A stretch of DNA of 64,000 nt, taken from assembly GCA_021432635.1 (NCBI GenBank), contig MU270016.1, positions 63,608 through 127,607 of the forward strand. Reading direction: 5' to 3'. A program made the position numbers and the translations under genes. Shown one piece after another: positions 1,941 to 48,850 of this stretch. A model generated the notes under the pieces. It was not told the origin of the DNA. It was given only the letters and a program-made list of their open reading frames with translations, and did no database searches. Position 1 is the stretch's first letter, and each line of letters starts with the position of its first letter. Source of the DNA: Thozetella sp. PMI_491 (taxonomy: Eukaryota; Ascomycota; Sordariomycetes; Chaetosphaeriales; Chaetosphaeriaceae).

Positions 1941-4900
1941 TTAATAAACTCTAAACATAAGTGAACGCCGAATAAATCCTTGATCTGAAGGGGTTTGGCT
2001 GCGCACAGCGGAATCAGCCAAGCTTGTGCGGTTTCGATTGCGTAAAGGTAACTGGCGAGGTTGACCTGAAGCCCATGTCCTTGGCATAATAGTGAATGAG
2101 TCGGCCTGCAATAAGTCCTCAGTTGATGGCACAGCACGGGATTCTGGTTGGCTGAGTGGTGCGGCGTTTGTAAAGAGCCTGCTGGTATATGTGTTGATAG
2201 CAGAACCTTTCTCCGAAGAAGGACAAAATCTGAAAAGCGTGTCTACTATGTCCCGATTGCGCTGGCTTAGCTTTTGTCCATCTGACTGTTTCCAGTCGAG
2301 GTAGAGGCAAACTAGCTCCCAGACTTCGACTTCACCGTCACCTTGCACCATGACTTTATCCAGAGGTGACATCCCAAGCTCCAACAGCTGCTGAACTAGC
2401 GGTAAACACTCTCCTAGTGATGCGGATAAGAGTACATTTGTATCCGAAAGTTCGCAGTCTAGGTGAGCTTGAGCTTTTCTCACTTTCGAGACGACGAATT
2501 CTGTCTGGCCTTTGTAAGCTGCGTAACAGACAAAGTCCATCTGCAAACGGACGTCGATGCAGAGGCTGCGTATTGATGTATCCAATGATGGTGCATAAAA
2601 TGCCCCGTAGAAAACGGGTCGCATTTCCACGGGGTCAGGTACATATCCATGGCTCTGGATTAACTGCTCGAAACAGTGCATGAGATTTGCCGGTATAGCT
2701 GGCCTGAATGTGCCGTTGGAGACCACTTTTCCTATTGAATCAAATATGTCGTCGAGAAGATCATTGCCGTAAGTATCCCCCATTGCAACGATGTCCACAC
2801 CAGAAGCAAACTTCACTTCGGCAAGGCGAAGTCGAAGGAAAGTATCTAGGTCGAATGAGAACCGCAGGTGTCCGCTCTTGCCAGTGGTTCTAATATAGTC
2901 TCGGACAGTCCGATGGAAACATTGGACTCTTTTTGAAAAGAACGCTGCACCAGGTCTTGAAGCTGCGCCTCTAGGGGAATCGACTACTTCTAGAAGGCAC
3001 TTGGTTATTCCAGGCAACTGTCGCTTAACCACATCCAGTGAATGCTCTAGCTCGCTCTTCGTAAATTTCGGTACGTATTCGGCAGGAAAGTCCTCATCGT
3101 CAAGATCCTCTACCCAGTCGTAGAGGAGGGCGTTGAGAGAGCTCGCAAAGGGGTTGAGGGCGGTCATGGTCAGAAACATGTGACATCGTTCTTGGTCGTG
3201 GTGATCAATGCTCATAATTATTCGCTCGTACAAGTGTCCTAGATCTCGGGGACAAGCTGATAAAGTGTTGTTCATCCTGGTTGGCGAGTCCCACCGCATG
3301 TGGGCTTCAAACAGGATTCGTACCACTAGAATCGCCCACATAAAAACTCCTTCGGACTTTTCGACAATGTCCTTGGTGAGATTTTTCGAAATCGACTCGA
3401 TTCGATCAAATTCCGGAAATTTGTTCAGGGCTTCGCGTACATAAAGGTAAATATCCGGCTTTGTGATTTCATGCAGATGAATGCGACGGTCTGGAGAAGC
3501 CGGGAAGGCGTGGAGGTATTCATTATACGGTCGGGAGCTGACGCAAATTTTAACATTTCCAGATCTTGTCCAGTCTCGAATTCTCAGAGCAAGATCATAA
3601 TGGTCCCAGCTGGAACCATGATATTCGTCTAGGCCGTCAATGAAAAGGCATAGTCTATGGCGAGGATCTTGAGCGTATACAAGGTTCTGGAATCCTCGAT
3701 GAATGTGAGCACTCCGAAAAAGAGATTTATCCAGTATGGTGTCCCGTGTAGAGTTTTCTGGATGTTGAAACAAGGCCCACTGTTCGGGGAAAACCGTAGG
3801 GATGAGATTTGGGCAGCCTCGTAATGTTTCGAACAGAATAGCTCTGAAAAGGCCCTCTAGGCTCATCTCTATTCGGCTGCCGGAGTTCCAGAAAAAGAAC
3901 TTCCCAATGATCAATTCCTTTTCCATTGCCCATTTCTGCAATTCCTCTCTAGTCCGAGGATGATTGCAGAGAAACTTCATTAGCGTTGACTTCCCTGATC
4001 CTGGATGGCCGGAGATGTGAAAGATACGGCTGCCGCTTGCTAACCAGCCTAGGATTGCCGATTTTGCGAGGTCCCTGCACTGCTTTTGGGCATCCTTGTT
4101 TCTGTTCATAACCGTTTCTGTATTTTTATTCCCAAGGTTGGATCTGATCGGTTCGGCATACTGAGTTCTTAGGCTAGGGGCTGCGGGAGGTAGAGGGGTG
4201 GTTTCTCTCGGATATGCGCCAATAGCAGTAGTGCTAAAGTCTATTTGTGGTTTCCATATAGCAGATGATGGTGGACTTGTTTGATGCTCATTATCATTTC
4301 TTGCTGCTGGCTGCTGGGAGCTCGCTGGTGTACCAGAGACCAAGCCTCTATCCCCAACGCTAGGGCCACTTTCCAACGGAGGCGGTGCTATTGTCTGGAG
4401 AAAGCCGTCTGGTGTCTCATGTGCATTATTTAGCAGCCACTCATATGTGCCTGCGTTAGCATCGGAAATAGAATCCTCTCGGTCATACATGAACTCGAAC
4501 GCGATCTGCCGTAAAATGCGATTCTCGATCGAGAGAAACTGTGCAGTTGAGAGGAAGCCACGCAATATTTTCGTCATACTATCCTCTGTATATTCATTCG
4601 ACGCCATCGTTGAAGGGTTGATAGTCACAGGCCCTCCTGCCTCGGGAGTCTCCGGCGGGAGACCGGCTGATGCTATTGGCGGCGCCCCAGGAGCTTCATC
4701 TTCGACGAACATTTCCGGGTATTTGTTGACTAGCTCCCTCGAAATAGAGCGTAGGATTTCTTGTCTCAGAGACTCAATCTTTGCCGCTGTAACCCTGGAA
4801 AGATTTATTCCCTCGCTAAGAATCTGGTTGAGATGGGTTGACATCGAAGATTGCCGATCACTTTAGCATCGCTTAGAGAATGGCTCTAGAACTATAGGAA

Positions 4901-41453: not shown

Positions 41454-44400
41454 ATGGCGGCAGCGGGCAGCGTCTTCCCCGAGACTCTCCAGGAGATCAC
41501 CAACACCAAACTCGAGGAGCTCTCCAAGCGACGTTCTGCTTACGAGGCCGAAAAGGCCGCTCTCCTTAGGTCTGTCGAGGAAAAGAAGACCCCACTGGAG
41601 CGGCTGTACACCCTCAGCGATGGGGCGAAGCGATGTCTCGGCATTGTTCTAGACAGCGACGGGAAGGTCACAAAGGGCTCCACCAAACACCCGGCCCTGG
41701 AGATAGAGCTCAAGAATCTGGATCATTTCCTAGCTCAGGCGCGCCACGACCCGTCAGTCTCAACCCGCACCATAAAGAAGTGGGAGGATTCCCTCATGCG
41801 GTACATCGACTCGCATTCCCTAAAGTTTGCGTACGCGTCCTTGTATGGCCAGCTCGTGACCGAGTGGCTGTCCAGTGAGCGGTCCAATGGCAACGCTGCT
41901 GGCGAGGATATCGACATGACCGAAGATTTCGAGACGATTGACAATGCTAAGAAGCTAGAGGCCAAGATGATATGGGAGCAAATGGTCTTTGAGCCCGCCA
42001 TCGTGGATCAGGAAAAGCTCAAGACCTATCTCAACGGACTCTTCGGCACAAAAGATCCTCAAAAGAAGCCCCTAAACCGCGCTCTTGGCCGTCTGCGGAC
42101 TCAGGTCAAGAATTTTGAGAAGGAGTTCCGCAGCGTTGATCAATTCACGCCAGACTCGCTCCGGTGGGTCATCCAAGGTCTTGTTCGCTCGGATCTCCTC
42201 ACAGACGAGAAGCGTGAAGTGCTGAAGGACTTTGCGAATAACGAGATCATCCTCGTTGAGGTTGCCGATGTACTGAACATGAGGATGGCGGCTATCGGAA
42301 CGTGGTCATGGGGGCCTAGCGTCCCCCTGGAGCAGCGTCGCCGCGTAACCGGGGCGTTTAGCATCTACATGCACGAGGACCTCCTGCAAGCCATCTTCCT
42401 CCACTACATCGGCGTTAAACTCTCCATCTTCTTCAAGAAGGCGTTCGGCAAGCTTCGCCGCGATGACGAGGCGTGGGTGTCCAACTGCAAGCAGTTTTCA
42501 CCGGCCGACAGGAATAGGATGGAATACTATCTCGGCTCGGGCGGTATAGACCGCAGCGAAACTCTGCAGAACCTGCGTCGTCGGGAACACCGGAGGAATT
42601 ACTTCATGTCGCAGCTCGTACGGTCCGAAAACCAGCCTGTCGAGTCCATCGAGGGCGAAGAAGAAGCAGACTATGCGCAACCCCAGATGGTGGCGACGAA
42701 TCAAGCTCCTGCGCAGGCGCCGCCAGCACCGCAACAGGCACCGCAGCAGATGGCACAGACCGCAACGCCGCAGATGTTCCAGCAAGCAATGCAGCAGCCA
42801 TCACAGCAACAGATGCAGCAGAGGGCACAGGCCCAGGCACAGGCACAAGCACAACAGCAGCAAGCAATGCAAGTCGGGTTACAACAGGCGCAAATGTCGA
42901 ACCATGCAATGCAGGACTATCAAATGCAGATGATGCTCCTAGAGCAGCAAAATAAGAAACGAATGATGATGGCCCGCAACGAGCAAAACCCACCCAGGGC
43001 ATTCCGTCGCTATAAAGGACCCGGGAGAGAGGATGAAGAGACTGACGATGAGGACGAGGTTCGGCCGAGGAGGCCCATGGAGATGAAGAAGAGAGTGCTC
43101 CACCTGCTTACGACTGAGATTACCATCAACACCACGTTATACGGCGACTTTACCGCCTTCCACACTGTCTTCAGCAACTGGTACTCTCTGTTCCCCCACC
43201 AGACCATCGAGTCCATCATGACACTGTTCGGATTCTCGGCCACCTGGCTGAAGTTCTTCAAATCCTTCCTTGAGGCCCCACTCAAGTTCATTGACGACGA
43301 CGGCCCAGTTCGGATCCGCCGCCGCGGCACACCCGGCTCCCACGCACTCAGCGAAGTCTTCGGCGAGGTAACGCTCTTCGTTCTCGACTTTGCCGTGAAC
43401 CAGGCAACTTCTGGAGGATTGTTGTGGCGTCTCCATGACGACTTCTGGTTCTGGTCGCCAGAACACGAGCGATGCGTCGAGGCGTGGAAGGCAGTCCGCG
43501 AGTTCGTGGACGCTACGGGGACCAACATCAACTATGGCAAGACCGGCACAGCGCGCATCACTGAGCCGGGCAAAGCGGCACCCCCAATTGACCCTTCACT
43601 TCCGCCGGGCGATATACGCTGGGGCTTCCTACGTCTCTCGTCCGACGAGGGCCACTTCGTCATCGACCAGCAGATGGTGGACAAGCACATCGTGGAACTG
43701 CGGAAGCAGCTGACCGAGAGGAGCAAGAGCGTCTTCAATTTCATCCAGACATGGAACGTATACGTCGCTACCTTCTTTACTTCCAATTTTGGGAAGCCGG
43801 CCAACTGCTTCGGTAAGAACCATGTCGACGAGATGCTCAAGACCCACGAGCGGATCCAGCGCGAAATCTTTGCGTCAAACTCGTCGCTGGGACCGGCAGG
43901 AGAGCGATCCTCCAATATTGTCGAGTACCTCAAAAACACCCTGGAAGATCGCTTTGGGGTTTCTGACATCCCGGATGGCTACCTGTTCTTCCCAGCCGAA
44001 CTTGGCGGCCTCGATCTCCAGTCACCGTTCATCCCCCTCCTGCAGATCCGCGACTCGCTCCTCAGCTCGGCGGGCCCTCTGCTAAAGGAGCTCGAGGAGT
44101 CGGAGCTCGACGACTATAAGCGGGCCAAGAAGATCTTTGACAGCGGCAATATTCGGCACATGCGCCAGGACAATCAGGATCCGCGCTGGGAGCCGCAGTC
44201 GCAGGTAGAGCGCGAGAACTTCATAAGCTTTCAAGAGTTCGTTAAGGACCGCGAGGCGGTGAATGTGGGCCACGGAATAAACGTCCGCCAAGTCTATGAG
44301 CGGCTCATGACACAGCCGGTCCAGGCGAACATCGACAGCAACGGTGCCATGATCGGCGGGGGCATCACGCCGCTTATGGACCAGCCGAGCCTGCGGGGCA

Positions 44401-44567
44401 TCCATAGCACCTGGCACTCGATGGAGCCGTACTGGAAATGGGTCGTCATGTTGTACGGGCCGGAGATATTAGAGCGCTTCGGCGGGCTGAATATCGTTGA
44501 CCCTGGACTGTTGCCAATGGGGATGGTCAAGGTGTTCCGAGAGAAGAGGGTGAAGTGGCAGAATTAA
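41454..44567 (+). CDS. rvt: Reverse-transcriptase-related cellular protein (rvt-like), 1037 aa
   Basis: A single intact exon with a strong start context. Residues 10-60 are coiled-coil helices. Residues about 412-520 are a low-complexity Gln/Ala/Pro insertion (many CAG/CAA codons), followed by an acidic patch DEETDDEDE. The C-terminal half carries reverse transcriptase motifs in order: motif A around D565 (LYGDFTAFH), motif B RGTPGSHALSEVFGE (624-638), motif C H661-D662-D663 in WRLHDDFWFW, motif D-like NINYGKTG (691-698), then WGFLRLSSDEGHF. Catalytic aspartates look intact. There is no endonuclease, integrase, RNase H or gag, and I see no flanking terminal repeats. This matches the rvt family of domesticated, non-mobile reverse transcriptases known in fungi, including a large insertion before motif A. 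Biological function is unsettled. Alternatives: a telomerase relative (motifs and insertion argue against) or a retroelement remnant (intactness argues against). Confidence 0.8.
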   Translation: MAAAGSVFPETLQEITNTKLEELSKRRSAYEAEKAALLRSVEEKKTPLERLYTLSDGAKRCLGIVLDSDGKVTKGSTKHPALEIELKNLDHFLAQARHDPSVSTRTIKKWEDSLMRYIDSHSLKFAYASLYGQLVTEWLSSERSNGNAAGEDIDMTEDFETIDNAKKLEAKMIWEQMVFEPAIVDQEKLKTYLNGLFGTKDPQKKPLNRALGRLRTQVKNFEKEFRSVDQFTPDSLRWVIQGLVRSDLLTDEKREVLKDFANNEIILVEVADVLNMRMAAIGTWSWGPSVPLEQRRRVTGAFSIYMHEDLLQAIFLHYIGVKLSIFFKKAFGKLRRDDEAWVSNCKQFSPADRNRMEYYLGSGGIDRSETLQNLRRREHRRNYFMSQLVRSENQPVESIEGEEEADYAQPQMVATNQAPAQAPPAPQQAPQQMAQTATPQMFQQAMQQPSQQQMQQRAQAQAQAQAQQQQAMQVGLQQAQMSNHAMQDYQMQMMLLEQQNKKRMMMARNEQNPPRAFRRYKGPGREDEETDDEDEVRPRRPMEMKKRVLHLLTTEITINTTLYGDFTAFHTVFSNWYSLFPHQTIESIMTLFGFSATWLKFFKSFLEAPLKFIDDDGPVRIRRRGTPGSHALSEVFGEVTLFVLDFAVNQATSGGLLWRLHDDFWFWSPEHERCVEAWKAVREFVDATGTNINYGKTGTARITEPGKAAPPIDPSLPPGDIRWGFLRLSSDEGHFVIDQQMVDKHIVELRKQLTERSKSVFNFIQTWNVYVATFFTSNFGKPANCFGKNHVDEMLKTHERIQREIFASNSSLGPAGERSSNIVEYLKNTLEDRFGVSDIPDGYLFFPAELGGLDLQSPFIPLLQIRDSLLSSAGPLLKELEESELDDYKRAKKIFDSGNIRHMRQDNQDPRWEPQSQVERENFISFQEFVKDREAVNVGHGINVRQVYERLMTQPVQANIDSNGAMIGGGITPLMDQPSLRGIHSTWHSMEPYWKWVVMLYGPEILERFGGLNIVDPGLLPMGMVKVFREKRVKWQN
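42690..42960 (+). repeat. Gln-rich low-complexity coding segment
   Basis: CAG/CAA/GCA-rich DNA encodes alternating Q, A, M and P inside the RT-like gene, including QAQAQAQAQQQQ. It remains in frame. Confidence 0.8.
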
Positions 44568-47472: not shown

Positions 47473-48850
47473 CTAGGAAATTCGATACTTGCCTTGACTA
47501 CTTTGAAACCATAATCTTGAAGCAAATATACCCGAAGATGCAGGTCCAAGGCGCCCGGTAAGACCTTTCACGACGACATAGCCTTCGTTGCCGTCGTGGA
47601 TGCTGCGAACTGCGCTAAACGAGGTGTTGTAGAACACTATGTGCCGAGGAGCATCAGCGCTGATCTCTGGCGAATTAGGCGGGCCTTACCGTTATGCGTC
47701 ATGGCGACATTCTTCAACTCGTCAATTACAAGGACGCGCAGCCAGGGAACAGAGTAATGAATGCAGTCAAAGACTATGACGCGGCAATCCTCGGGGCCTT
47801 CATCCGGAAAAGACTCAATGCCTGGGCGGGTGGCTACCCACGGCATGTACTTTTCAGAATCATCATCCATGGCCAGTGCCATCCAGTCTCGGCTGTCCCA
47901 TTCGAGCTGGGCGCGAACTCCAGTGCTGTACATATTCTGTGAGTAAGCGAACGAAGGGACAAAGCTGGACAGCATCTCACGTCTGAAACACGATCTTGTA
48001 TCGATCGACCGGCTCTTCCAGCCAGGAGCGGCCATCCCAGGTATCCTGTGCAGATCCCGATGCCCTTCCAAGCCATCGAACCGCCTGGGATTGGGATAGA
48101 TCAGGCCGGCGGGCAAGGAGCTGCTGTGGCGGTTTGGGATGGTATCGCTTTACCTCATAATCGTCTGCCTTCTTCTGTCTCAGGCGTAGCAGCTCAATAA
48201 AGCGGTCAGCTTCTGTGTCATCGGGTTAGTTACTGGACAGTGTAAAGAATTTGATTAATTCTTTGGAGTCACATAGGAGCAGTATGTACCGTTAGGATCC
48301 TTGAACCAGAATGAGGAGTGCAAAATGCCGCGAGATACGGGTCCAAACCTGCCGTTGAGTCCCTGCACACGAACAAGCCCGAGCTTGTCATCGAGGCTTC
48401 TGCTCCCTGAAAAGCTCGTATTGTAGAAAACTGTTGCTAGTTAGAAAGATATAGGGACTGGGTTCGATTTGAGCTCTTACTCCCATGAGCCAAAGAGATG
48501 CCGGTAGTTTCATCGAATGCAATGATATGCGTTTGAGGCGTAGTATGGCTGACGCAGTCAAAAACTAGAACATGGCAGTCGCTGGGGCCGTCATCCGGAA
48601 AAGTTTCGTCATCGGGAGTGTTTCGCCGAATAGACGCTAGCCACGGCCGGGAATGCTCAATTTCCTCCATTTCAGAGAAGCCATCCACGATGTGCGAGTC
48701 AACTTGGACCCCGACGAAGCGCCTGCGAGGTTGTGAGCCAAGTGCCATCATAGTGGGTACGGACAATACTTTACGATTCGAATATTATCTTATACCGGCT
48801 GATTGGCTCCTCCAACCAGCTAGTCCCATCCCAGGTGTCTTTGCTTGATG
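47473..48850 (-). repeat. Intragenic tandem domain duplication
   Basis: This part of the hydrolase gene encodes two copies of a roughly 160-residue unit. Both copies are cut by introns at the same places: phase 2 after RYKI-x-F-x-x (introns at 48723-48774 and 47926-47980) and phase 1 just before FYNTSFS (introns at 48431-48480 and 47637-47689). Shared intron position and phase show duplication of a genomic segment that already had introns. Confidence 0.8.

What the first reader, a model, noticed from the sequence alone, without database searches (positions are those of the whole stretch)
41454..44567. Intact domesticated reverse transcriptase (rvt-like) gene
A 1037-codon uninterrupted gene carries RT motifs A (D565), B, C (H661-D-D663), D and a following beta-hairpin region, but no endonuclease, integrase, RNase H, gag or flanking repeats. 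Known rvt genes in fungi are single-copy cellular reverse transcriptases with a large insertion before motif A; here that place holds a roughly 110-residue Gln-rich segment. Preserved catalytic residues in a non-mobile context suggest the RT activity itself is under selection for a host function.
Basis: partly seen in the sequence, partly recalled or inferred. Interest (0 to 1): 0.88.

Follow-up and report, generated by a model that had tools for sequence, protein, structure and literature searches.

The report
Fungal RT relative missing catalytic aspartate
This fungal gene is an intact, non-mobile relative of the cellular "rvt" reverse transcriptases, but it has lost one of the three acidic residues that such enzymes need, so it probably no longer makes DNA and instead serves as a partner or scaffold protein beside two paralogues in the same genome that keep all three.

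Summary
(1) Motif A is misplaced: D565 lies 7 residues upstream of the catalytic column, which is residue 572, Val here. (2) It is not single-copy: the 72.3-Mb genome holds four intact rvt-type genes. Two (C68, C21) keep D at motif A plus DD at motif C. The window gene (V) and its sister C9 (T) have lost the motif A Asp but keep DD. The sisters differ at 44% of residues yet stay open and non-neutral (2dlnL 557), so I read them as conserved pseudoenzymes: non-catalytic rvt-derived proteins, perhaps partners of the active paralogues. Partnership is untested. In passing: the Gln-rich loop holds a ~31-residue peptide shared with three other proteins of the genome. New variant of a known kind.

The parts
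41454..44567 (+). rvt-type reverse transcriptase-related ORF, 1037 aa, motif A Asp missing
   Evidence: RT_UG37 E 7.4e-60, best stretch residues 441-860
41472..41582 (+). N-terminal long helix (residues 7-43), alignable in the four paralogues; possible multimerisation helix (inference)
   Evidence: alignment A3; DSSP of a low-confidence model
42234..42488 (+). probable motif 1-2 (fingers) region, residues 261-345; the motif names are my assignment from recall
   Evidence: 51 of 85 residues identical to C9
42489..43088 (+). insertion before motif A (position of rvt loop 2a), residues 346-545
   Evidence: 164 residues between conserved S386 and L549 here versus 94, 42 and 38 in C9, C68 and C21
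42672..42983 (+). Gln-rich stretch, residues 407-510 (36 Q of 104), only in this copy of the four
   Evidence: short tandem repeats 42726-42853
42897..42989 (+). ~31-residue peptide module (residues 482-512) shared with three other proteins of this genome
43140..43199 (+). motif A strand and loop, residues 563-582
   Evidence: no gap over this stretch in the four-paralogue alignment
43146..43148 (+).
   Evidence: column is D/E/D/E in the four paralogues; masking costs 1.4 bits in UG37 versus 4.3 and 4.2 for D662 and D663
43167..43169 (+). V572 (GTC) in the motif A catalytic Asp column
   Evidence: T in C9, D in C68 and C21; profile masking
43317..43367 (+). motif B RRRGTPGSHALSEVFGE, residues 622-638
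43437..43442 (+). motif C D662-D663, kept in all four paralogues
43464..43643 (+). motif D-E region, residues 671-730 (K696 and G698 invariant in the four)
43644..44033 (+). thumb-like region, residues 731-860, among the most conserved parts (90 of 130 identical to C9)
44034..44564 (+). C-terminal region 861-1037, beyond the best UG37 stretch; alignable in the four paralogues, with a short separate UG37 match of its own

Best explanation
The gene encodes a conserved RT pseudoenzyme of the rvt group. Shown: it is homologous to rvt/UG37-type RTs; it is one of two sister genes (C2 = window, C9) whose motif A aspartate column holds V or T; motif B and the motif C DD are kept; the pair has evolved under protein-level constraint; two other paralogues in the same genome (C68, C21) keep all three aspartates. 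Inferred: without the motif A aspartate the two-metal polymerase centre cannot form, so it makes no DNA. Inferred, weaker: it acts through its retained RT fold and N-terminal helical region as a non-catalytic subunit or regulator, most likely by assembling with the active rvt paralogues (compare p51 in HIV-1 RT, or the dead RT domain of Prp8; both recalled). The expanded loop before motif A would serve as an interaction arm.
For: Family: RT_UG37 E 7.4e-60, paralogues 1.4e-53, 1.1e-64 and 1.7e-50; 14 of the 15 Foldseek matches at E <= 0.001 are RTs, and the top 16 VIA-align rows are R2, LINE-1 or group II intron RTs. Motif A: the four-paralogue alignment has no gap there and gives V/T/D/D at 572 and D/E/D/E at 565; MAFFT against two group II intron-type RTs puts their motif A Asp opposite V572. 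Profile masking of the window core: D662 -4.3 and D663 -4.2 bits, D565 -1.4, V572 +0.8. In a recalled D-bearing probe in the same UG37 register, masking the D costs 4.2 bits in UG37, and lowers all 6 of the 19 listed families whose best stretch covers it. Selection: 963 codons C2-C9, 2dlnL 557.5 against omega = 1; NG86 dN 0.36, dS 2.6; neutral substitution gives a mean of 11.5 and a minimum of 3 stops in 100 runs, none seen. Tree: (C2,C9)|(C68,C21), ultrafast bootstrap 100, unrooted.
Against: No assay. dS is saturated, so selection is shown over long time only. UG37 at E <= 0.001 also rings in 3 of 14 control genomes, so a bare hit is not specific; the case rests on E-values and length. Retention of DD in both sisters would be unneeded in a pure scaffold, though 167 of 292 columns identical in the intact pair are kept in all four. 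AlphaFold models are poor (mean pLDDT 49.5 and 60.8), Foldseek TM-scores are low, and the second model made motif A a helix rather than a strand. Partnership with the active copies is untested.
Confidence: 0.6

Rival explanations
1. Active rvt: the protein is a working reverse transcriptase or terminal transferase, with D565 or another acid replacing the motif A Asp.
For: Motif C DD and motif B kept; D565 column is acidic in all four copies; D565 contributes 1.4 bits in UG37.
Against: The intact paralogues carry the acid at 565 in addition to D at 572. Among ungapped columns the only acid new to both C2 and C9 in the RT core is E670, after motif C. In the low-confidence full model residue 565 lies just before strand 566-573, while 572 is near its far end.
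Confidence: 0.12
2. Stand-alone nucleic-acid-binding scaffold: the dead RT fold binds RNA or DNA and builds a complex without the active rvt paralogues, as the Prp8 RT domain does in the spliceosome.
For: RT fold kept (nine of the 50 rows are spliceosome entries, taken by recall to be Prp8); thumb region well conserved, 69% to C9; the peptide shared with other proteins suggests partners of its own.
Against: No direct evidence for RNA binding. The N-terminal region is also conserved at the average level (55% to C9); that rvt proteins multimerise through it is recalled, only the word multimerization being seen in a title.
Confidence: 0.22
3. Decaying duplicate: a redundant copy caught before it breaks.
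For: Catalytic residue lost; one loop expanded with short repeats.
Against: Frame intact at 56% identity to its sister, which also lost the Asp; strong non-neutrality. In the same genome 33 of 35 listed RVT_1 places carry stop codons, so decay is readily seen there.
Confidence: 0.04

Closest known systems
rvt genes (Gladyshev and Arkhipova; Neurospora crassa RVT)
   Same: RT-related cellular gene outside mobile elements, large insertion between motifs 2 and 3, purifying selection, found in fungi, bacteria and rotifers (passages of PMC5718144, PMC3520738, PMC10680173)
   Different: described as single-copy with intact catalytic residues needed under stress; here four copies, and this one lacks the motif A Asp
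PADLOC RT_UG37 (bacterial DRT group)
   Same: significant match through the N-terminal and RT regions in the four paralogues
   Different: the UG37 profile favours Asp at the 572 column; that UG37 equals bacterial rvt is my inference; no UG37 member was fetched
Prp8 RT-like domain
   Same: conserved RT fold without a working catalytic centre in a host protein (recalled); nine spliceosome entries, taken by recall to be Prp8, among the 50 rows
   Different: no sequence-level relation found here; no link to the spliceosome
DRT9 and related protein-primed RTs
   Same: weak profile and fold matches (not significant, E 0.19); DRT9 assembles as a hexamer and is protein-primed (passages of PMC12483538)
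   Different: DRT9 is active and bacterial with an ncRNA partner

Membership tests
rvt | RT motifs B and C with DD | tested here: met
rvt | motif A catalytic aspartate | tested here: not met
   V572; D in C68 and C21, T in C9
rvt | large insertion (loop 2a) between motifs 2 and 3 | tested here: met
   164 residues against 94, 42 and 38 in paralogues; definition from a passage of PMC5718144; motif 1-2 placed by recall
rvt | single copy | tested here: not met
   four loci by protein and by UG37 profile search
rvt | not part of a mobile element | tested here: met
   no transposon domain in 20 of the 46 listed ORFs scanned
rvt | purifying selection | tested here: met
   (long-term, between paralogues; dS saturated)
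rvt | direct match to a characterised fungal or bacterial rvt protein | not tested
rvt | non-templated polymerisation | not testable with these tools
   needs protein
PADLOC RT_UG37 | significant match to the UG37 profile | tested here: met
   3 of 14 control genomes also ring at E <= 0.001
telomerase RT | telomerase-specific profile or clade | tested here: inconclusive
   no Pfam telomerase hit at E up to 1; telomerase structures appear among general RT folds; no tree with TERT made
retrotransposon RT (RVT_1) | PF00078 match with element domains or repeats | tested here: not met

The most novel reading that the evidence does not exclude
Fungi keep a second, catalytically dead rvt lineage as a dedicated non-catalytic partner of the active stress-responsive rvt enzymes. 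In this species its loop has taken up a peptide also found in a LisH/Flo8-like regulator, which would tether the rvt machinery to a transcriptional regulator.
Probability: 0.12. Interest if true: 0.75.

Novelty: new variant of a known kind. Interest (0 to 1): 0.5.

Why it matters
The passages read here describe rvt genes as single-copy and their catalytic residues as needed for stress relief. A genome with two intact and two conserved active-site-less copies separates what the rvt fold does from what its polymerase activity does, and gives a natural control for the unknown rvt function. It also warns that an open RT frame with a DD motif is not enough to infer an active RT.

Tried and rejected
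Rejected: D565 as motif A. Rejected: retroelement origin of the locus. Rejected: sequencing error as the cause of the lost Asp, because the sister gene also lacks it with a different residue.

Led nowhere. Viral-contig scans found no confirmed relative. Genome contigs by alignment: 74 stretches matched a pattern, none confirmed. A motif B DNA pattern gave 7 loci; blastp of their frames of 150 aa or more gave no hit below E 0.8. UG37 was not found at E <= 1e-15 in 396, 392 and 396 genomes drawn from three bacterial phyla; the controls did not ring either, so absence is not shown. In 6 genomes behind the pattern loci one had a partial UG37 match, E 1.6e-11 in a 400-aa frame, not followed up; 3 of 14 control genomes rang at E <= 0.001. 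A plasmid tblastn with P0001 gave 5 records, E about 2 to 4; two were read (L001, L002) and encode what I read as group II intron-type RTs. With the C68 protein 143 plasmid records matched, best E 4e-5, a 454-aa Rhodococcus RT-domain protein; many of the listed rest are annotated as group II intron RTs. The phage search gave 2 records at E 3 to 7. PHROGs and NCBIfam gave nothing credible. The RT-core AlphaFold model was worse in the palm than the full one. YN00 failed, and the ML omega ran to saturation. One search stopped with a formatting error after printing part of its output; the simulation was rerun. Pfam found no LisH domain in the C37 protein, although I read one there. The 2011 rvt paper and the 2018 bacterial rvt paper are not held, so I cannot say whether dead rvt copies have been described there. 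The searches listed no report of one in this open-access library (listings, plus passages of six papers; the passages of PMC4920403, use 'RVT' for ordinary retrotransposon genes). One search was a listing only.

Full report

Not single-copy. The window lies at C2:63608-127607 of a 72.3-Mb genome in 157 contigs. A tblastn-type search with the protein gives, besides itself, three further loci matched over both sides of the loop without stops: C9 (60% and 55% in two pieces), C68 (43% and 34%) and C21 (35% and 34%). The other three of the ten listed matches are short hits to the Gln-rich loop. A separate search with the UG37 profile gives six matches in the same four loci and no others at E <= 0.001; 3 of 14 control genomes also ring at that limit. 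The reading frames are 965, 860 and 903 aa from the ATGs that I chose. All four match UG37.

In the four-way alignment the stretch from 563 to 582 has no gap. The D565 column reads D/E/D/E (C2/C9/C68/C21). The residue 572 column reads V/T/D/D, codons GTC/ACT/GAC/GAT. The motif C columns 662 and 663 are D in all four. C68 and C21 carry the acid at the 565 column and also D at the 572 column, so the 565 acid is not the catalytic one. An alignment with two group II intron-type RTs from Streptomyces plasmids puts their motif A aspartate opposite V572.

Profile test. I masked single residues of the window's 180-aa RT core with X and re-scored UG37 (unmasked 71.9 bits): D662X 67.6, D663X 67.7, D565X 70.5, T571X 70.9, V572X 72.7, S574X 71.8, N575X 69.7, H582X 69.0, H661X 72.3. 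Masking its motif A D drops UG37 from 96.1 to 91.9, UG17 from 25.9 to 20.9, UG4 from 25.7 to 23.2, Drt9 from 23.1 to 18.7, and two further RT models by 2.1 and 1.5 bits; these are all 6 of the 19 listed families whose best stretch covers the position, the other 13 starting after it. So Asp in this column is expected by several RT profiles and is absent here. The probe is not a database sequence; the paralogue and group II alignments do not depend on it.

Selection. C2 and C9 are 56% identical over 963 codons; p-distances by codon position are 0.33, 0.25 and 0.58; NG86 dN 0.36, dS 2.6. A GY-type ML fit runs to saturated dS, but omega = 1 is rejected by 2dlnL 557.5, and by 101 to 188 in each of the four sub-regions tried. 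Neutral substitution (no indels) of the window gene to 22% amino-acid change gives a mean of 11.5 and a minimum of 3 stops in 100 runs. In the same genome 33 of 35 listed RVT_1 places carry in-frame stops, mostly TAA, and none of the 35 is one of the four rvt-type loci. Of 292 columns identical in C68 and C21, 167 are kept in all four; 82 are changed in both C2 and C9, and 37 of these, 572 included, differ between C2 and C9. So the constraint on the Asp was lost while the frame was kept. The unrooted four-taxon tree groups C2 with C9 (ultrafast bootstrap 100).

Not mobile. A 5-kb DNA query matches only itself and diverged segments of C9 (69%) and C68 (68%). No repeats bracket the gene. Of the 46 ORFs of 150 aa or more, 20 besides this gene were scanned with Pfam and none hit a transposon domain; neighbours include an ERG4/ERG24 family gene upstream and a frame with a below-cutoff ankyrin match downstream.

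The loop. Between conserved S386 and L549 the four proteins have 164, 94, 42 and 38 residues; only the window copy is Gln-rich (36 Q in 104 residues). Within it, residues 482-512 form a peptide found in three other proteins of the genome: at C37 (E 1.5e-12), C1 (1.0e-9) and C26 (3.6e-7). A pattern for its core has four exact matches, the same four loci; with up to two mismatches there are 24 matches against 15 for the reversed pattern, and tblastn of the 20 fetched loci finds no further carrier at E below 1. Third codon positions are the most diverged (15 of 36, 15 of 26 and 18 of 31 identical, though for C26 first positions are nearly as diverged, 21 of 31), so the peptide seems kept as protein. 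The C37 gene starts with what I read as a LisH stretch and looks like a Flo8/SomA-type regulator (recalled), but Pfam found no domain in it. The C1 protein has VWA domains and shares a second segment with C37 (27 aa, 78%). The C26 protein has DUF7025.

How it likely works. Established knowledge: RT polymerisation needs the motif A Asp and the motif C Asp to hold two metals. A protein with V in place of the former should be inactive. The kept fold, N-terminal helices and thumb suggest a binding or structural role. The title of the 2018 bacterial rvt paper names multimerization and protein priming (seen in reference lists), so assembly with the active paralogues is my first choice; a stand-alone scaffold as in Prp8 is the second. 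Neither was tested.

What the literature says. Passages describe rvt genes as domesticated, with loop 2a between motifs 2 and 3 (PMC5718144); the N. crassa protein as non-essential, induced when translation is blocked and a terminal transferase in vitro (PMC3520738); and the genes as single-copy, under purifying selection, with intact catalytic residues needed for stress relief (PMC10680173). The primary papers were not held.

Limits. No fungal genome other than the window's own could be searched, so whether the Asp-less branch is widespread is open. From memory I believe similar Asp-less sequences occur in other fungi, but no call shows it. No assay, no reliable model of the active site, and the second AlphaFold job modelled motif A as helix at low confidence.

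Noticed in passing
window 42897-42989 (residues 482-512); L033 2398-2487; L034 2506-2583; L035 2738-2646: A ~31-aa peptide (NHAxQDYQMQxMLLEQQNKKRxMMAR in three of the four, looser in C26) is shared by four proteins of this genome (rvt-like, LisH/Flo8-like, VWA, DUF7025); no paper text holds the three strings searched.
   Followed up: partly
L031/L034 (C1 VWA protein) and L033 (C37): The VWA protein shares two separate segments with the LisH/Flo8-like protein (the peptide and a 27-aa segment at 78%), as if parts of one gene had been copied into the other.
   Followed up: partly
own genome, 35 RVT_1 places: 33 of 35 listed RVT_1 matches carry in-frame stops, mostly TAA, as expected from repeat-induced point mutation of retrotransposons.
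   Followed up: no
window 1941-4844 (-): STAND-like gene: NPHP3_N and DUF7791 above cut-off, NACHT just below it.
   Followed up: no
window 47763-47812 and 48554-48603: 80% identical 50-nt direct repeat 791 bases apart, possibly a local duplication.
   Followed up: no
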